This document shows positions 40,582 to 46,999 of a stretch of 64,000 bases of DNA, piece after piece. The first letter of the stretch is position 1, and every line of letters starts with the position of its first letter. A program made the position numbers and the translations under genes. The stretch comes from Blautia sp. (GTDB lineage: Bacteria; Bacillota; Clostridia; Lachnospirales; Lachnospiraceae): the NCBI GenBank assembly GCA_017463155.1, contig JAFTPT010000010.1, forward strand, positions 62,001 through 126,000, given 5' to 3'. The notes under the pieces were generated by a model. It had not been told where the DNA came from and did not search any database. It saw nothing but the letters and a program-made list of their open reading frames with translations.

Positions 40582-41601
40582 TTGATTGAGAATAATAATG
40601 AGACAGATGAGAAGAATGATTTTTTTTCCATGCTGTCAAAGCTTCCCGGTATGCCTGAGGATCCGGCGGGGCAGATGCTGGTCATCTGCAGGCCAAAGGT
40701 AGAGGGCTGCGGAGAGGATTGCTTTCTTGCGCTTCAAAAAGATGAGCGCTTTTTCTGCGGCGTATTCGATGGCTGTGGCGGAAGCGGGGGCAAGGTCTAT
40801 CCTGCTTTCGGGGGACATACCGGGGCATGGGCCGCATCACGGGCTGCGGCAGCTTCTGCCGGAGAGTGGTTTCTGTCAGGCTTCCAAAACAAGAATAAAG
40901 AAGCCCCGGAGCTTGCTTCCTATGTCCGCAAATATCTTAAAACATGCAAAGAGCAGGATACGGGTGGCCAGGTACTGCTTGGATCGCTCAGCAAAGATTT
41001 TCCCACCACGATCGCAGCTTTTTGTATGAATGATACAAAGGGCAATATCGTGGATTTTTACTGGTGCGGAGATTCCCGCTGTTATGTTCTGGACAAGGAT
41101 GGCCTTCATCAGGTGACAGCAGACGATTCCGCTGTGCAGGATGCTATGCAGAATCTGCGCGAGGATGCGGCGATGACCAACGTTGCCAGTGCTTCGCAGG
41201 ACTTTATCCTCCACAGAGGCACAAAAAAGATCCGGAAGCCTGCAGTCATTCTTGCTGCGACAGATGGCTGTTTCGGTTATCTGCTCTCCCCCATGGAGTG
41301 GGAGAGGACGTTGCTTGAAACGATGCACTGCGCTTCCTCTGAGGAAAAGTGGATGGATCTCCTTGATGAGCGGATCGGGAAGGTTTCGGGGGATGACTAC
41401 ACGCTGACGGCATGGCCGCATGGTTTCCGTTCATTTACGGAAATGAAACAGACATTCGAGGCAAGGCTTTCTTTTCTGGAAAAAAACTATCCCGCGGCTG
41501 AGTCCGAGGAAGAACTTTTCCGTCAATGGGAAAAGTACAGGAACGGCTATGAGAGCATGCTGGCAGAATGTAAAGAAGATCCTGAAAGAGGTTGGGAATG
41601 A
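40582..41601 (+). CDS. PP2C-type protein phosphatase
   Basis: About 339 residues, cytosolic. Metal-site motifs of PP2C are visible: FFCGVFDGCGGSGG, FYWCGDSRCYVL, ILAATDGCFGYL and GDDYTL. PP2C enzymes remove phosphate from Ser/Thr using two Mn/Mg ions. Relative to common bacterial forms, a long insert (about 30 residues) separates the DG motif from the helix. I choose the TTG start at 40582 because GAGGAGGG lies just before it. The ATG at 40501 is in frame but has no ribosome site and is 27 codons longer. It overlaps the kinase gene by four bases, so the two opposing enzymes are co-translated. Confidence 0.85.
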   Translation: MIENNNETDEKNDFFSMLSKLPGMPEDPAGQMLVICRPKVEGCGEDCFLALQKDERFFCGVFDGCGGSGGKVYPAFGGHTGAWAASRAAAASAGEWFLSGFQNKNKEAPELASYVRKYLKTCKEQDTGGQVLLGSLSKDFPTTIAAFCMNDTKGNIVDFYWCGDSRCYVLDKDGLHQVTADDSAVQDAMQNLREDAAMTNVASASQDFILHRGTKKIRKPAVILAATDGCFGYLLSPMEWERTLLETMHCASSEEKWMDLLDERIGKVSGDDYTLTAWPHGFRSFTEMKQTFEARLSFLEKNYPAAESEEELFRQWEKYRNGYESMLAECKEDPERGWE

Positions 41602-42509
41602 GAGAGATAAACGGATACCAGCTCGAAACAGAGCTGAAGACCACGAACAGCGGATTTTCCAAATGGGGCTTCGCTAGAAAGAATAACAGGAGCTATTTCA
41701 TTAAGGAGCTGATCGATCCTGTGTATCCGGTATATGAAGATCTGCTGGATCCGGCCACTCTGGCACATAAGAGAAAGATATGCCAGATGTTCGAAGACCA
41801 TAACAGGCTGCTGTATCAGTGCATCAATAACAGCTCCGACGGGAACCTGGTACATATTGAGGACTTTTTCCGTCATGGCAGCCATTATTATATGGTGATG
41901 GAAAAGGTGGACGCCATCAGCCTGGAAGAAGTCAGACGTATTACAAATGAGGATAAACTCCGCATCTGCAAGGCTCTGGTTCATTGTCTCGGTAAACTGC
42001 ACCAGAACGGGATCGTGCATGCTGATATCAAGCTCGACAATATTCTGTTCCGACGTCTTCCTTCCGGAAAGGTGACGGGAAAGGTGATCGACTTTGACAA
42101 CTGTTTCTGGGAAAAACAGCCGCCTTCTCCCGATGAAGAGATTCATGGCGATCTGGTCTATATGGCACCGGAGACCTTCGTGATGATGCAGATGGAAGAG
42201 GGAACCATAACCAGAGCGATCGATGTGTTTGCCCTGGGGATCCTGTTTCACCAGATTTTTACAGGCAGACCGCCCGGCTTTGACGCATCGAAGTTCGATT
42301 ATCCTTTTGAAGCCGTGCTTGGCGGAGAACGGCTGATCGTAAGTCCGGAAATACCGGATGAATGGCGGCAGCTGATCGATCGGATGCTGGCGGGGATCCC
42401 CGAAAAACGGATCGACTTAAGTGAGGCGGAAGCCCTGCTTCGCGGAAAAAGCACGAAAACAGAATACGGCGGTCAGGCAGCATATCTGATACCGGCCGGT
42501 GATCTATGA
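41598..42509 (+). CDS. Soluble Ser/Thr protein kinase
   Basis: A 303-residue eukaryotic-type kinase without membrane or sensor domain. Lys36 (YFIKEL) is the likely ATP lysine. The catalytic loop is HADIKLDN (Asp143, Asn148). The DFG motif reads DFD (Asp165) and APE is at 190-192. The Gly-rich loop is poor (SGFSKWGFA). The key residues suggest activity, but the DFD motif and loop are unusual. The ATG at 41598 overlaps the PP2C stop. Likely substrates are the neighbouring vWA and zinc-ribbon proteins; this is inferred from operon position. Confidence 0.85.
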   Translation: MREINGYQLETELKTTNSGFSKWGFARKNNRSYFIKELIDPVYPVYEDLLDPATLAHKRKICQMFEDHNRLLYQCINNSSDGNLVHIEDFFRHGSHYYMVMEKVDAISLEEVRRITNEDKLRICKALVHCLGKLHQNGIVHADIKLDNILFRRLPSGKVTGKVIDFDNCFWEKQPPSPDEEIHGDLVYMAPETFVMMQMEEGTITRAIDVFALGILFHQIFTGRPPGFDASKFDYPFEAVLGGERLIVSPEIPDEWRQLIDRMLAGIPEKRIDLSEAEALLRGKSTKTEYGGQAAYLIPAGDL

Positions 42510-42525
42510 AATGGAGGGTTATGAC

Positions 42526-43203
42526 GTGGCACTGAAGATGACATACAACGTGGATATGTGTTTCTGCATCGACGCGACGGGCAGTATGGGACCGGTAATA
42601 AGCAAGGTCAAGGAAAATGCGATCTCCTTTTACCAGGATGTGACCAGAGAAATGGAAAGAAAACAGAAAAGCCTCGACCATATGCGGGTACGGGTGATCG
42701 TGTTCCGCGATTATGTGGCTGATGAAGAACCGATGATGGTCAGCCGTTTCTTTGATCTGCCTGCGCAGGCTGTACAGTTCGAGGCCTGTATCAACAGTAT
42801 CGAAGCAAATGGAGGCGGCGATGAGCCGGAGGACGGGCTGGAGGCCCTGGCCTATGCCATTCGTTCGGACTGGACGAAGGAAGGTACCAAGCGCAGGAAC
42901 ATCATTGTGGTGTGGACCGACGCCTCTACCCACGCGATCGGCTACGCGAAGGAGCAGCCCAAATATCCAAAGGGTATGCCGGCAGATTTCAATGAGCTGA
43001 CGAAATGGTGGGGAGACAGCCAGATGGAGCCTTACATTAAAAACGCCGCGAAGAGACTGGTGCTTTTCGCACCGGATGCCCCCTACTGGAAGCAAATCAC
43101 ATCCACATGGAACAACGTGATCCATTATCCGTCCACAGCCGGTAAGGGGCTCCAGGAATATACCTACAAAGAGATCGTGGACGCGATCTGCAACAGCATC
43201 TGA
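42526..43203 (+). CDS. vWA-domain protein
   Basis: A 225-residue cytosolic protein that is almost entirely one von Willebrand A domain. It has MIDAS residues Asp16-x-Thr18-x-Ser20 (CIDATGSMG), an acidic loop GGGDEPEDG and a later VVWTDAS strand. vWA domains bind partners through a metal ion. I use GTG at 42526, which follows GGAGGG; the longer frame from 42499 overlaps the kinase. With the kinase and PP2C it forms a triad like the TerY-P-type vWA/PP2C/kinase sets, though its sequence is not clearly TerY. Confidence 0.82.
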   Translation: MALKMTYNVDMCFCIDATGSMGPVISKVKENAISFYQDVTREMERKQKSLDHMRVRVIVFRDYVADEEPMMVSRFFDLPAQAVQFEACINSIEANGGGDEPEDGLEALAYAIRSDWTKEGTKRRNIIVVWTDASTHAIGYAKEQPKYPKGMPADFNELTKWWGDSQMEPYIKNAAKRLVLFAPDAPYWKQITSTWNNVIHYPSTAGKGLQEYTYKEIVDAICNSI

Positions 43204-43224
43204 GATTCTGAAGGAGGGGTGAAC

Positions 43225-43548
43225 ATGTTTTGCAGAAAATGTGGTGCCGAGCTGCGTACAGGAGCCAGATTCTGCGGCAAATGCGGCACACCAGCACCAG
43301 CCGGGAGTACTGCCGGTAAGGCAGCAGGCACAGGAACCGGAGCAGTAAAGAAACCGGAAGAAGAGACCGTACATATATTCTCCTCGTCTGCCTCTGAGAC
43401 CAGGACGGACACGGCAAAGACAGAAACTCGTAAGGAACCTGTCAGGGAAGAAAAATCACCGGAGCTGATCATTCATATGCCCGAGACCAGGACCAGCAGC
43501 AGTAACGGACAATTCAACGAATGGTTCTCTGAACCAGGAGATCTGTAA
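43225..43548 (+). CDS. Zinc-ribbon protein with disordered tail
   Basis: A 107-residue protein: an N-terminal zinc ribbon (FCRKCGAE...FCGKCG, four Cys in C-x2-C pairs), then a Thr/Ser/Glu-rich, probably disordered tail ending ...SSSNGQFNEWFSEPGDL. The tail offers many possible phosphorylation sites next to a kinase gene. Start 43225 follows AAGGAGGGG. Confidence 0.7.
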   Translation: MFCRKCGAELRTGARFCGKCGTPAPAGSTAGKAAGTGTGAVKKPEEETVHIFSSSASETRTDTAKTETRKEPVREEKSPELIIHMPETRTSSSNGQFNEWFSEPGDL

Positions 43549-43560
43549 GGAGGATCAGTC

Positions 43561-44166
43561 ATGAGCACATACAATACAGAAACCGATATGCCGATGAAAT
43601 GGCATAAGTTCCTGATCTATTTCAGCCTATGGCTGTCTGCCCTTGGGGCTGTGGCCAGCGGGGCACAGCTGCTTACCGGCAGCCAGTATGGGACCGGCGA
43701 TGTCATAGCCCAGGTTTACGAAATGTACGGCGGACTTAAGACAATTGACATGCTTTTCGGGATCCTGTACATAGCACTGGCAGCTTTCTTTATCTATACA
43801 CGGTTTCAGCTGGCGGGCTTCAAGGAAGGAGCACCCAGGAAGCTGATGATCGCTTATATCCTCAGCTTTGTGCTGTATGTGGGCTACGCTTTGGCTGCGT
43901 CCAGTGCGGTCGGGATTCCTTTCCGGGAGCTTATGACATCGCAGGTGGCTTCCTCAATTGCAGGAAGTGTTGTGATGATCATTGCCAACAATGTGTATTA
44001 CAAGAAGAGGCAGCATCTCTTCGGAGAAGCGGCCGCATCCTCCTATACAGCCCCCTCGTACGAAACCGAAACGACAGCGGGGCGGGGGACCGGTTTCTGC
44101 CCGCATTGCGGGGCAAGGGTGGAGCCGGAGGACGCTTTCTGCGTGAACTGCGGTAAAAAACTGTGA
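43561..44166 (+). CDS. Four-helix membrane protein with C-terminal zinc ribbon
   Basis: A 201-residue protein with hydrophobic helices at about 16-38, 62-80, 93-115 and 126-145, a short Thr/Ser linker, and a C-terminal zinc ribbon (FCPHCGARVEPEDAFCVNCG). An even helix number puts both ends on the same side, probably inside. I recognise no family for the membrane part. Confidence 0.7.
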   Translation: MSTYNTETDMPMKWHKFLIYFSLWLSALGAVASGAQLLTGSQYGTGDVIAQVYEMYGGLKTIDMLFGILYIALAAFFIYTRFQLAGFKEGAPRKLMIAYILSFVLYVGYALAASSAVGIPFRELMTSQVASSIAGSVVMIIANNVYYKKRQHLFGEAAASSYTAPSYETETTAGRGTGFCPHCGARVEPEDAFCVNCGKKL

Positions 44167-44176
44167 GGAAAGCACA

Positions 44177-45256
44177 ATGAGTGAGGACAGCGGCTTCTGT
44201 CCCAGGTGTGGGGCAAAAGTGGAAACAGGCGATGCGTTTTGCGTAAACTGCGGTGCGAGCCTTAAAACCGGAGGGACTTCCGAAGGCAGAACGTCCTCCG
44301 CGGACACAAAAGCCGGCGATGGGAAAGGCAAGCTGCGTTCCAGGGTACTCTCCGTCATTGCCGTGATCGCTATTGTATATGTTATTTTTTTTATGCCGGG
44401 TAAGGACGGTGATACCGTCAGGAATTACGCTGACGCGGCGGCCAGTCTGGTCAAACAGACGGACAGGCATGAGGAGATGATCTATCTTGGCTATGATATT
44501 CCCGGGTTTGAGGAAGAGCTTTCCGGCTTTCAGCCTTCCGAGGTCAGTGTGACCCTCATGGGTGAGGATGTTATGTACCGGACTTACCGGCAATCCTTCC
44601 GGTATGACGGAAATCCCCGCCATGGGGAACGTTCAGCCCTGACTGCATATCCGGAGGGTGCGGAAATCTACCTAAATAAGTCCGGAAAAGAGTATTCCTC
44701 CCTGCGGCTGAAGATCAGGATGAAATATTTCATTACCAAATCGCAGGAAGACGAACTGCAGAAAAAAGTGGAAGAGATCCTGGCAGGACTGCATCTGGAT
44801 GGAAAGTCGGATTATGAGAAGGTACGCGCCATATATAACTATATCTGTAGCAATGTCACCTACGACTATGTAAATCTAGGCAACAATGATTATCTGCCGC
44901 AGTATACGGCGTATGCCGCATTGTTTGACCACACGGCTGTCTGCTCCGGCGTTGCGGAGCTATTCTATGTCATGGCGGCTGCCGCCGGCGTGGAGGCACA
45001 TATCAAGACCAGCGCGGATCACGCATGGAATTTTGTCAAGGTGGATGGTCTTTATTACTATCTGGATGCAACCTGGGATCTTGGCAGGCCGGAATCGGAA
45101 TATCAGTATTTCCTGAAGGGTAAAAGTGATTTCATACTGAATATTGAGGAGATATCGCACCGCTTCACGGTCACCTATGATCCGCATGGCTTCCTCAACT
45201 ATCTGAATCATGTTGACGATGGCTATTCCTTCAGCGAATACGCCTATACAGCGTGA
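44177..45256 (+). CDS. Membrane-anchored zinc-ribbon transglutaminase-like protein
   Basis: A 359-residue protein: an N-terminal zinc ribbon (Cys8, 11, 22, 25), a membrane helix (~55-73), then an outside transglutaminase-fold domain. Triad Cys256 (HTAVCSGV), His282 (ADHAWN) and Asp297 (YYLDATWD). Start near AGGAAAG, 11 bases after the previous gene. The domain parallels the secreted transglutaminase at 2463-4772 (shared YNYI, TAVC, W-D blocks), but here it is tethered and linked to a cytosolic zinc ribbon. Confidence 0.8.
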   Translation: MSEDSGFCPRCGAKVETGDAFCVNCGASLKTGGTSEGRTSSADTKAGDGKGKLRSRVLSVIAVIAIVYVIFFMPGKDGDTVRNYADAAASLVKQTDRHEEMIYLGYDIPGFEEELSGFQPSEVSVTLMGEDVMYRTYRQSFRYDGNPRHGERSALTAYPEGAEIYLNKSGKEYSSLRLKIRMKYFITKSQEDELQKKVEEILAGLHLDGKSDYEKVRAIYNYICSNVTYDYVNLGNNDYLPQYTAYAALFDHTAVCSGVAELFYVMAAAAGVEAHIKTSADHAWNFVKVDGLYYYLDATWDLGRPESEYQYFLKGKSDFILNIEEISHRFTVTYDPHGFLNYLNHVDDGYSFSEYAYTA

Positions 45257-45324
45257 TGGCCGGTGGAGTGTGAAGGTACGATCTGGAACTGATGAGACAG
45301 GATTTTCTATAGAAGGAGTATTTT

Positions 45325-45684
45325 ATGGGCAAGAAGGAAATTGTGATCTGTCCGAAATGCGGAAGTACCCGGGTCGAGATCAAAGGCGTTCTTCAGCGAA
45401 AACATGGTGCCTGGTACTATCTGAATGGCGGCCCCATCGCTGACGCGGGCGTGCGTATGGGAAACCGGCTGAATCACGCGGTGACCGGAAACAAAAACGA
45501 CGCAAAGTGCCTGAACTGTAAATTTGAGTGGACGCCCGGCAAGGAAAATGTGCCTGCAGCGTCCACTGCGGCAGGACCGGCGAAAGAGGCGTCGCCTGTT
45601 TCACGTCCGAAATACTGCCGGGCATGCGGAACCGCGATCGAACCGGGCGACATGTACTGTGTGCAGTGCGGCAGAAAGCTGTGA
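45325..45684 (+). CDS. Double zinc-ribbon protein
   Basis: A 119-residue protein with two zinc modules: CPKC...CLNC (about 9-60) and CRACG...CVQCG (about 98-116), joined by an Ala/Pro-rich linker. No membrane helix. The first module resembles large, unusual zinc ribbons with a long loop. Start after AGAAGGAG. Confidence 0.68.
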   Translation: MGKKEIVICPKCGSTRVEIKGVLQRKHGAWYYLNGGPIADAGVRMGNRLNHAVTGNKNDAKCLNCKFEWTPGKENVPAASTAAGPAKEASPVSRPKYCRACGTAIEPGDMYCVQCGRKL

Positions 45685-45718
45685 TGATATCTGCTGTGCA
45701 GGAGAGAGGGAATAAGGG

Positions 45719-46927
45719 ATGAGTGAAGAGATCAGGAAATGGCGCTGCCCGTATTGCGACGGCCTTAATGACTGGCAGGACGAGATATGCCAGATCTGCG
45801 GGGACGGCCACCGTCCGGAAGCGGAGGAATCTGCGAACACCGAAGATATTTCCGCGGGAACCGCTCCGTCTGCCGTACATGAGGAAGCGGCGGAGCCGGA
45901 AAAAACAAGGCCTGCCTACGAAGGTGAACGCCGTGATGAGACTCCGGCCACTTCAGCACCGCCTGTACCGCACAAAAATAATAAAGGCATTCTGGTGGCG
46001 GTCCTGCTGGTCGTGGCAGCATTGGCAGGCGGGGGACTCTATAATTATAATAAAAGCAATGAGCCTGCGCCCCTGGAGATCAAGGACAACAATAATGGAA
46101 CCGTGTCCGTGAAGATGATAAACGGATCTGATTATGAAGGATGGAATGTCGCTGCCGTCTATCTGGGAGACGATCCGGATGCTGAGAATCTGATCGATTA
46201 TTTTGGCAGGGAAAGGAGCAATTATACGCCATTAAGCTATACTATCGGCAACGGGGAACAGAGTGAACCTCTGGGTATAATCCCGGGCGGTTATACGCGC
46301 TTTATTCTGGAACCGTATGATAAATCCTACAGATCTGTATCACGATGGGAGCTGGAACCGGTCTACTATCCGGAAAGGACGGAGAAGCTGCCGCTCACTA
46401 TCAGGAATGTGAAGATCTGTAGATGGGAAGATTATAATGCAATGACGGAGGACCAGGATAAACTGTTTGAAGCCGATTATCATGACCAGGAGCTTCCCGA
46501 TCTTACTCTTGAAGAGGTTCCCCTGACTTCGGCAGAAGAACTGAACGCCTGCATCAGCAATGGAAAGCCAAATGATATACAGGCATGGGCCGAGCTCGGC
46601 TTTCTGATTGAGACGGAAACGGATTTCAATGATTTAGATGAATACTTTGAGTGGAAGGAATCGCCGGCACACACAGACAAAACGGCAGTTACACTTCTTC
46701 TCAGAGGCCCTGGTTTCTGGGAGACCTATTATGATAAATTTGAGAATAGCTTCATACAATACCTCAGGAATGGAAATGGCATCGGCGTGATCAATGGTGG
46801 TCTGTTGGACAGCTTATATCCCAGACTGAGGGAAGTGAACGGAACCGGGTATGTACCGGGGGATTATGCGCTGGAGTTCTACATTCGCGGAGTGAAAGTT
46901 TACACTCTCCCCTTTACATTAAGCTGA
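45719..46927 (+). CDS. RanBP2-type zinc finger membrane protein with extracytoplasmic domain
   Basis: A 402-residue protein. Residues 8-27 match the RanBP2 zinc finger W-x-C-x2-C-x3-N-x6-C-x2-C exactly (Trp8, Cys10, Cys13, Asn17, Cys24, Cys27). A Glu/Pro-rich linker, one membrane helix (~90-108) and an outside domain of about 290 residues follow. I see no known fold there (blocks VKMINGSDYEGWNVAAVYLGD, GGYTRFILEPYDKSY). RanBP2 fingers in eukaryotes bind ubiquitin, Ran or RNA. The function is unknown. Confidence 0.72.
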   Translation: MSEEIRKWRCPYCDGLNDWQDEICQICGDGHRPEAEESANTEDISAGTAPSAVHEEAAEPEKTRPAYEGERRDETPATSAPPVPHKNNKGILVAVLLVVAALAGGGLYNYNKSNEPAPLEIKDNNNGTVSVKMINGSDYEGWNVAAVYLGDDPDAENLIDYFGRERSNYTPLSYTIGNGEQSEPLGIIPGGYTRFILEPYDKSYRSVSRWELEPVYYPERTEKLPLTIRNVKICRWEDYNAMTEDQDKLFEADYHDQELPDLTLEEVPLTSAEELNACISNGKPNDIQAWAELGFLIETETDFNDLDEYFEWKESPAHTDKTAVTLLLRGPGFWETYYDKFENSFIQYLRNGNGIGVINGGLLDSLYPRLREVNGTGYVPGDYALEFYIRGVKVYTLPFTLS

Positions 46928-46949: not shown

Positions 46950-46999
46950 ACAGGCTGTCCTTTCCATTTCTCCATGGAAGAGGACAGCCTGTTCTTTTA
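46950..46999 (+). terminator. Operon terminator
   Basis: A perfect 12-bp outer stem ACAGGCTGTCCT (46950-46961) / AGGACAGCCTGT (46981-46992), with an inner TTCCAT / ATGGAA stem and a TCTTTTAC tail. Confidence 0.88.

What the first reader, a model, noticed from the sequence alone, without database searches (positions are those of the whole stretch)
40582..46927. Eight-gene kinase, phosphatase, vWA and zinc-ribbon operon tied to the cell surface
A PP2C phosphatase, a soluble Ser/Thr kinase and a vWA protein are followed by five zinc-binding proteins. Three of these are membrane anchored, with zinc ribbons predicted inside and a transglutaminase or an unknown domain outside. Small gaps and ATGA overlaps, one promoter and one strong terminator make it a single unit, visibly more A/T-rich than its neighbours. 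The triad recalls TerY-P-type vWA/PP2C/kinase sets, but I know of no described system with these zinc-ribbon surface partners. Inferred model: phosphorylation controls zinc-ribbon docking and, through membrane proteins, an outside process.
Basis: partly seen in the sequence, partly recalled or inferred. Interest (0 to 1): 0.9.

Follow-up and report, generated by a model that had tools for sequence, protein, structure and literature searches.

The report
Membrane kinase operon with docking tag
Some gut bacteria carry a gene set in which a kinase, a phosphatase and an adhesion-type (vWA) protein sit beside zinc-binding surface proteins, and the kinase and its zinc-binding partner end in the same short peptide, which looks like a docking tag for an undescribed signalling system at the cell surface.

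Summary
In detail: eight same-strand genes, PP2C, Ser/Thr kinase, vWA and five zinc-ribbon proteins (three in the membrane), closed by a strong terminator, A/T-richer than the flanks. It is not chance. Of 80 related loci, 78 hold the kinase and 75 the PP2C with the vWA. Outside one divergent clade, 55 of 57 tree rows (window included) have a ribbon-pattern gene within four genes. Four of six above-cut-off ribbon places in the whole genome lie here.

The new finding is a tag. The kinase ends, after an unconserved linker, in [F/Y/W][F/L]xx[A/P]GDL, and so does the small soluble ribbon protein (gene 4). No other open frame of 100 aa or more in the 3.07-Mb genome ends in [A/P]GDL. In relatives the tag recurs on ribbon proteins, a second kinase, a TIR-kinase and membrane proteins near the triad, and on none of 471 distant ORFs.

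Best reading: a membrane-linked phospho-signalling module in which kinase and ribbon adaptors are gathered by a shared docking peptide. Its reader is unproven. I suggest the integrin-like metal site of the vWA, but a read-through AlphaFold model did not place the tag. It works like TerY-P triads, but vWA and PP2C are not recognisable relatives of the one TerY-P set tested.

The parts
40582..41601 (+). PP2C-type Ser/Thr phosphatase (start TTG 40582 or ATG 40501)
   Evidence: PF13672 E 4.7e-8; Asp columns D46, D63, D164, D228, D272 invariant in 17 rows (their metal role is recalled)
41598..42509 (+). soluble Ser/Thr kinase, catalytic residues intact, ends in the tag AYLIPAGDL
   Evidence: PF00069 E 3.1e-26; invariant K36, D143, K145, D165 in 61 rows; tail
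42483..42506 (+). docking tag of the kinase (YLIPAGDL)
   Evidence: PSSM score 12.8; in ten kinases the linker is 18% identical and the tail 58%
42526..43203 (+). stand-alone vWA protein with intact MIDAS motif (DxTxS ... D)
   Evidence: VWA_4 E 3e-11; D18, T20, S22, D134 invariant in 33 rows; the nine solved chains found are all integrin beta-8, best E 6e-4
43225..43548 (+). gene 4: small soluble zinc-ribbon protein with a long linker, ends in the tag NEWFSEPGDL
   Evidence: Zn_Ribbon_1 E 3.2e-9; tag
43462..43482 (+). second conserved element of the gene 4 tail (ELIIHMP), before the tag
   Evidence: 50% identity over residues 78-84 against 19% in the linker, nine orthologues; similar KLIIxM / KSTMR elements in some other tails
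43522..43545 (+). docking tag of gene 4 (WFSEPGDL)
   Evidence: PSSM score 12.0; unique in the genome together with the kinase tag among frames of 100 aa or more
43561..44166 (+). gene 5: multi-TM protein with C-terminal zinc ribbon
   Evidence: Zn_Ribbon_1 E 2.4e-8; homologues of 55-59% identity in L048, L051, L075
44177..45256 (+). gene 6: N-terminal zinc ribbon, one TM, outer transglutaminase-like domain with Cys-His-Asp visible
   Evidence: PF01841 E 3.8e-10; solved relative 9crn E 4e-5
45325..45684 (+). gene 7: soluble protein with C-terminal zinc ribbon and an N-terminal CxxC pair
   Evidence: Zn_Ribbon_1 E 1.1e-6
45719..46927 (+). gene 8: N-terminal RanBP-like ribbon, one TM, outer domain of unknown fold
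   Evidence: homologues in L048, L049, L050, L051, L075; no hit in the 97 other relatives and no meaningful solved relative
46950..46999 (+). intrinsic terminator
   Evidence: -29 kcal/mol, z -7.1, 0 of 200 shuffles as stable

Best explanation
A membrane-linked Ser/Thr phosphorylation module. The vWA, PP2C and kinase form a conserved cytosolic core. Zinc-ribbon proteins are its clients: single-pass and multi-pass membrane proteins keep the ribbon inside and carry exchangeable domains outside, and a small soluble ribbon protein (gene 4) acts as an adaptor. Kinase and adaptor end in the same short peptide, [F/Y/W][F/L]xx[A/P]G[D/N]L, on an unconserved linker; this is a docking tag that gathers kinase and clients on one reader in the core. 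Shown: gene set, conservation, ribbon enrichment, tag sharing and its restriction to these loci. Inferred: that the tag is a binding peptide and that the ribbons are inside. More weakly inferred: that its reader is the vWA metal site and that phosphorylation by the kinase, reversed by PP2C, switches the membrane ribbon proteins and what they do at the surface.
For: Core: 78 of 80 loci hold the kinase and 75 of 80 the PP2C with the vWA. Ribbons: 182 of 511 ORFs within four genes of the core have the four-Cys ribbon pattern against 12 of 275 at eight or more, p 3e-26; 55 of 57 tree rows outside clade B have one; 58 of 61 clade A loci have a ribbon-pattern ORF with a predicted TM. Tag: a profile trained on kinase tails alone scores >=8 on 25 of 420 non-kinase neighbours in clade A, 0 of 115 in clade B and 0 of 471 distant ORFs (p 5e-9), and on 0 of 74 PP2C and 0 of 79 vWA; shuffled tails give 0.29 of 535 on average, at most 2. 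In the whole genome only the kinase and gene 4 end in [A/P]GDL among open frames of 100 aa or more. In 11 relatives the six such frames found are core kinases or operon ribbon proteins. The tail is conserved where the linker is not. Tag-like stretches also occur internally or near the N-terminus of some neighbours (L079, L119, L123, L124). Kinase and partner tails vary together by locus (22 loci, 0 of 5000 permutations).
Against: A read-through AlphaFold chain of vWA plus gene 4 left the tag at pLDDT below 50, so no docking was seen (its alignment held no gene 4 rows, so this is weak). 17 of 59 clade A kinases score below threshold; some have a variant, some no tag. Tagged partners were found in only 23 loci, and one of these 25 proteins is a piece of the core kinase itself. 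Some tags have Asn where a metal ligand would need an acid. The score cut-off of 8 was chosen after seeing the distribution; at 6, two distant ORFs pass. The looser internal pattern hits 10 of 431 near, 1 of 116 clade B near and 5 of 512 distant ORFs, so by itself it is weak. The permutation test does not remove shared ancestry. Expression, phosphorylation and topology were not measured.
Confidence: 0.55

Rival explanations
1. The tail is a regulatory hydrophobic motif that folds back on the kinase itself, as in AGC kinases, and ribbon proteins present the same peptide to the kinase; the kinase, not the vWA, is the reader.
For: The tag is most frequent on the kinase (42 of 59 in clade A); two further kinases carry it (L108, L077); its aromatic pair recalls hydrophobic motifs (recalled).
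Against: In L059 the kinase has no tag but a ribbon protein does. The clade whose tail differs also differs in the vWA at a clustered set of sites. The kinase structure that would test this could not be run, so the rival stands largely untested.
Confidence: 0.25
2. The tail is a degradation signal shared by proteins of one operon.
For: The scored tags lie at or within two residues of the C-terminus, often on soluble proteins.
Against: Tag-like stretches also occur internally and near the N-terminus (L079, L123, L124), many kinases have one or two extra residues after the tag, and no other long open frame of the genome ends so, which a general protease signal would not explain.
Confidence: 0.08
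3. An anti-phage defence system: a TerY-P-like or kinase-based module.
For: The kinase domain matches PADLOC kinase models (mad6 3.8e-32, PD-T4-6 3.6e-22); one relative has a TIR-kinase beside the core; distribution is patchy.
Against: None of the other seven proteins matches a PADLOC model at E<=1; such kinase models match kinases in general (inference); the window flanks look like housekeeping and sugar genes (names recalled); some partners are surface proteins with peptidase, repeat or wall-binding domains.
Confidence: 0.1
4. A loose cluster of ordinary genes whose adjacency is co-inheritance without a joint function.
For: Ribbon genes turn over fast; gene 8 was found in none of the 97 other relatives.
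Against: The triad is found together in 75-78 of 80 loci and in different surroundings where I looked; ribbon enrichment and tag sharing have no reason under this view.
Confidence: 0.04

Closest known systems
TerY-P triads (vWA, PP2C, kinase), e.g. E. coli yegL-pphC-yegI
   Same: Three stand-alone genes of the same three superfamilies side by side; a zinc ribbon goes with the kinase in the described sets (PMC11090510, passages). PphC and the window PP2C both hit PF13672. That yegL-pphC-yegI is such a set is recalled.
   Different: vWA and PP2C are not found as relatives of YegL/PphC. The ribbon is not fused to the window kinase but lies on separate proteins, three of five in the membrane. No nuclease, helicase or Ter gene among the eight proteins. 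The kinase carries a peptide tag, absent from the YegI end.
Actinobacterial kinase-ribbon + PP2C + vWA sets of GAP1-N2 GTPase systems
   Different: Those belong to GTPase-centred conflict systems in actinobacteria; no GTPase family appears among the matches of the eight proteins, and I did not search the flanks or relatives for one.
TcaA-like membrane proteins (cytosolic zinc ribbon, one TM, outer domains)
   Same: Layout of genes 6 and 8; gene 6 matches the TcaA model over residues 8-73, the ribbon and TM part, E 6e-5.
   Different: 22 bits against a cut-off of 550, no match in the outer part; TcaA is not known to come with this kinase triad (recalled).
Integrin beta I domain and its RGD(L) ligands
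   Same: Nearest solved relatives of the vWA profile (E 6e-4); integrin ligands coordinate the MIDAS metal through an acidic residue (PMC8038522, passages). The tag ends in GD-L.
   Different: Extracellular animal receptors; here both parts are expected in the bacterial cytosol, and binding is only a proposal.

Membership tests
TerY-P triad | TerY-like vWA | tested here: not met
   Profile of 92 relatives does not find YegL (E 0.12); hhalign 14 columns only, probability 41. Only YegL was tested, not TerY of Ter operons.
TerY-P triad | PP2C of the triad type | tested here: inconclusive
   Same Pfam family PF13672 as PphC, but the family profile does not find PphC (E 0.15).
TerY-P triad | kinase fused at its C-terminus to a zinc ribbon or OB fold | tested here: not met
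   Window kinase ends about 25 residues after the domain match, no ribbon. One relative, L114, has a CxxC...CxxC pattern before its tag (sequence), not scored as a ribbon by Pfam.
TerY-P triad | association with Ter, restriction or DNA-processing genes | tested here: not met
   Window only: recD2-like and comF-like genes upstream, which I take as housekeeping, and fucosidase-like and sugar-transport-like genes downstream (names recalled from the sequences, no family search made). Not surveyed in all relatives.
MADS / PD-T4-6 defence kinases | partner genes of the system | tested here: not met
   Only the kinase matches PADLOC; the other seven proteins have 0 families at E<=1. Flanking genes were not scanned.
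TcaA family | score above the curated cut-off over the whole protein | tested here: not met
   Gene 6: 22 bits against 550.
MIDAS-type vWA domains | DxSxS/DxTxS ... D metal motif and vWA fold | tested here: met
   VWA_4 E 3e-11; motif invariant in 33 rows; model of alternating strands and helices with block pLDDT 75-97 over the vWA part. The structure library search could not be run.

The most novel reading that the evidence does not exclude
Inside these bacteria an integrin-like vWA protein reads, through its metal site, the Asp of a short [A/P]GDL peptide carried by the kinase and by interchangeable zinc-ribbon clients: an intracellular counterpart of RGD(L) recognition that wires any tagged protein (ribbon adaptors, membrane proteins, TIR-kinases) into one phosphorylation core. 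A sister clade uses a different kinase tail (NGLSRFMKK) and mostly lacks the ribbons.
Probability: 0.3. Interest if true: 0.9.

Novelty: new variant of a known kind. Interest (0 to 1): 0.74.

Why it matters
It would describe a surface-signalling system of gut and rumen Clostridia in which a portable peptide tag, rather than domain fusion, decides which proteins join a kinase-phosphatase core. Because the tag is short and, in the genomes tested, confined to these loci, clients can be predicted from sequence, and the binding step can be tested with synthetic peptides. It would also give a function to stand-alone vWA proteins that accompany bacterial kinase-phosphatase pairs, which as far as I know is an open question.

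Tried and rejected
Tried without result: viral contigs gave no relative of the vWA. The outer domain of gene 8 has no Pfam or NCBIfam match and no meaningful solved relative. The structure of the kinase with its tail and the fold search of the vWA model could not be run. A first alignment for the vWA plus gene 4 chain was spoiled, because the gene 4 rows slid onto the vWA; it was redone without them. Paper searches for this combination found no description (listings, with passages read in PMC7159879 and PMC11090510); Anantharaman 2012 is not held and is known to me only through PMC11090510. Rejected: TerY-P membership, defence by kinase match alone, a C-terminal degradation signal (internal tags), recent duplication of a gene end (kinase and gene 4 tags share one of eight codons, read).

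Limits of the counts: ORFs in the 80 loci were called by my own longest-ORF script with a bonus for ribbon patterns and for the + strand, near and far alike. 'Ribbon' in the neighbourhood counts means the pattern CxxC-5to25-CxxC; it also catches other four-Cys proteins (one search shows a DNA glycosylase and a DnaJ protein among them), and only 58 of the 118 larger ones scanned match Zn_Ribbon_1 at E<=0.001 (40 match DZR). The 80 loci are the best of 248, mostly metagenome assemblies. One of the 25 tagged partners (L068:9593) is a broken-off piece of the core kinase, leaving 24. The 18 partner clusters overcount independent families, because masked linkers hardly align. Tag counts for kinases include the rows used for training (30 tails, 28 distinct). 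TM segments are from a simple hydropathy scan.
Full report
What is there. The eight genes at 40582-46927 exist as described: PP2C, kinase, stand-alone vWA, a soluble ribbon protein (gene 4), a multi-TM protein with a C-terminal ribbon (5), ribbon-TM-transglutaminase (6), a soluble ribbon protein (7) and ribbon-TM-unknown (8). PP2C and kinase share an ATGA; other gaps are 10-68 nt. GC is 0.50-0.53 against 0.57-0.59 just upstream and 0.54-0.56 just downstream. A strong terminator closes the unit. The promoter-like site upstream is no better than chance. Catalytic and metal-site residues of kinase, PP2C and vWA are invariant in the alignments made (61, 17 and 33 rows).

Is it more than chance? 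In the whole 3.07-Mb genome Zn_Ribbon_1 is over its cut-off at six places, four of them in this operon. The vWA is patchy in relatives. In one search, nine of 98 genomes, the window's own included, have a strong hit (E 2e-31 or better), all among the 60 genomes of its genus; one of the nine, G010, is a remnant. The other 18 genomes with a hit in that call have weak ones (E 2e-9 to 7e-6). In one search, 6 of 397 family genomes match at E<=1e-20, own included. In one search, 3 of 398 phylum genomes match at E<=1e-15, own included; the other two cover only part of the domain in frames of over 1600 aa. A scan of genome contigs gave 248 relatives, of which the best 80 were kept. In these 80 loci the kinase is found in 78 and the PP2C in 75, in two main gene orders (PP2C-kinase-vWA and vWA-PP2C-kinase) and in different surroundings where I looked. 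Neighbouring ORFs with the four-Cys ribbon pattern are 182 of 511 within four genes against 12 of 275 at eight or more; 62 of 80 loci have at least one.

Where ribbons are missing. A tree of vWA plus PP2C (74 rows, quick method) has one strongly supported clade of 17 rows (clade B) with a ribbon pattern within four genes in 3 of 17. Of the other 57 rows (window included) 55 have one, and the two exceptions are short contigs. The kinase domain alone gives the same split, with one change on the tree (73 rows). Clade B kinases end in NGLSRFMKK-like tails, a pattern found in 16 kinases and in none of 1360 other ORFs.

Layout of the ribbon proteins. In 61 clade A loci there are 182 ribbon-pattern ORFs within five genes; 92 have an N-terminal ribbon followed by TM, 44 TM followed by a C-terminal ribbon, 35 are soluble and 11 other (simple hydropathy). 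Of 123 ORFs of at least 175 aa listed, 117 were given to Pfam together with gene 6 of the window (six were left out). Of these 118, 58 match Zn_Ribbon_1 and 40 DZR at E<=0.001, and a few are clearly other four-Cys proteins. A minority have recognisable further domains: BspA-type repeats (4), transglutaminase (4), InlB-like repeat (2), and one each with Ig-like, peptidoglycan-binding or penicillin-binding-protein C-terminal domains. L119, one of the six left out there, has a subtilase domain. Such domains act outside the cell in known proteins, so the ribbon is most likely inside (inference).

The tag. Reading C-termini showed that clade A kinases end, after an unconserved linker, in peptides such as SFFAPAGDL, NLFFRPGDL and GFFKRAGDL; the window kinase ends AYLIPAGDL and gene 4 ends NEWFSEPGDL. 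A position matrix trained on 28 distinct kinase tails scores at least 6 in 42 of 59 clade A kinases, training rows included, and 0 of 17 in clade B. At 8 or more it marks 25 of 420 non-kinase neighbours in clade A, in 23 loci, 0 of 115 in clade B and 0 of 471 distant ORFs, and no PP2C or vWA. One of the 25 is a broken piece of a core kinase. Shuffled tails give a mean of 0.29, maximum 2 of 535. At a cut-off of 6, 29 of 535 neighbours and two of 471 distant ORFs pass. Carriers include soluble ribbon proteins, proteins with predicted TMs (L065, L068, L104), a second kinase (L108) and a TIR-kinase (L077; the TIR match is just under its cut-off). Tag-like stretches also lie inside or near the N-terminus of neighbours (L079, L119, L123, L124). 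This looser pattern hits 10 of 431 near ORFs in clade A, 1 of 116 in clade B and 5 of 512 distant ones, so it is only suggestive.

Genome-wide test. The DNA pattern for [A/P]GD[L/F]-stop occurs 19 times in the genome (five of these read TGG, not a stop); only two open frames of 100 aa or more end in it, the kinase and gene 4. In 11 relatives, the pattern for F..[A/P]G[D/N][L/F]-stop has 19 matches in 8 genomes; the six in open frames of 100 aa or more are three core kinases and three operon ribbon proteins, from five genomes. Three of the 11 have no match; the tail of at least one of them (G040) has an extra residue. In nine gene 4 orthologues the ribbon is 61% identical, the linker 19% and the last 14 residues 62%; in ten kinases the domain is 65%, the linker 18% and the last 8 residues 58%. 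Kinase and partner tails of one locus resemble each other more than shuffled pairs (22 loci, 0 of 5000), though common descent contributes. Some tails have a second element (KLIIxM or KSTMR) further in; the loose pattern I used for it also hits 34 of 471 distant ORFs and 42 of 79 vWA, so only the gene 4 family alignment supports it.

How it may work. The tag has no conserved Ser, Thr or Tyr, so it is more likely a docking peptide than a phosphosite (inference). No vWA or PP2C carries it, which fits a reader among them. The vWA profile's nearest solved chains are integrin beta-8 (E 6e-4), whose kind binds an acidic residue through MIDAS (PMC8038522, passages); the tag ends in GD-L. Between clades A and B the vWA has 14 switched positions, five of them within ten residues (N199, P204, S205, A207, G208), while PP2C has 3; this is suggestive only, since PP2C is less conserved overall. 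The direct test I could run, an AlphaFold chain of vWA and gene 4 obtained by reading through the stop between them, gave a confident vWA (block pLDDT 75-97), a moderate ribbon and everything after it below 50, tag included. It does not support docking on the vWA; with no gene 4 rows in the alignment it does not exclude it.

Comparison. TerY-P triads have a vWA, a PP2C and a kinase fused to a zinc ribbon or OB fold (PMC11090510, passages), and a similar set is reported in actinobacterial GTPase systems (PMC7159879, passages). The present system works like these in its cast, but the vWA and PP2C profiles do not find YegL and PphC, and the kinase profile finds YegI only weakly (3.8e-5); the ribbons are separate, mostly membrane proteins. 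I searched the held papers for the combination and found no description of membrane zinc-ribbon partners or of the tag; subscription papers are mostly not held.

Noticed in passing
L036 (G010) and L035 (G040): G040 has the full core next to a run of genes that read like MATE, ABC, NUDIX, PlsX, RNase III and SMC (names recalled); G010 has the same run with only the C-terminal part of the vWA left, so the operon seems to have decayed in place there.
   Followed up: partly
L067, L069, L078 (Ruminococcus and Oscillospiraceae loci): Proteins next to the core have a shared FPLRxNN-like stretch near their start; in L067 and L069 the kinase has no tag, so this may be another type of tag.
   Followed up: no
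L065, L068, L042, L043: FHA-type proteins (one with leucine-rich repeats, L065), and in some loci a second PP2C or a second kinase, lie near the core, pointing to wider phospho-signalling clusters.
   Followed up: partly
L077:8508-9917: A protein with a TIR-like domain and a kinase domain beside the core ends in a tag-like peptide.
   Followed up: partly
L112, L115: Two loci labelled Succinivibrionaceae carry the vWA and kinase (L112 also a PP2C, set apart); L112 sits on a long branch. Either transfer out of Clostridia or mis-binned contigs.
   Followed up: no
own genome G000:C42:113518-114303: A weak zinc-ribbon match directly before a kinase domain in one 563-aa frame, outside the operon.
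   Followed up: no
clade B loci (L084, L085, L087-L094, L096-L098, L100-L102, L107): Seventeen loci keep the triad, sixteen of them with a different kinase tail (NGLSRFMKK-like), mostly without ribbon neighbours; their clients are unknown.
   Followed up: partly
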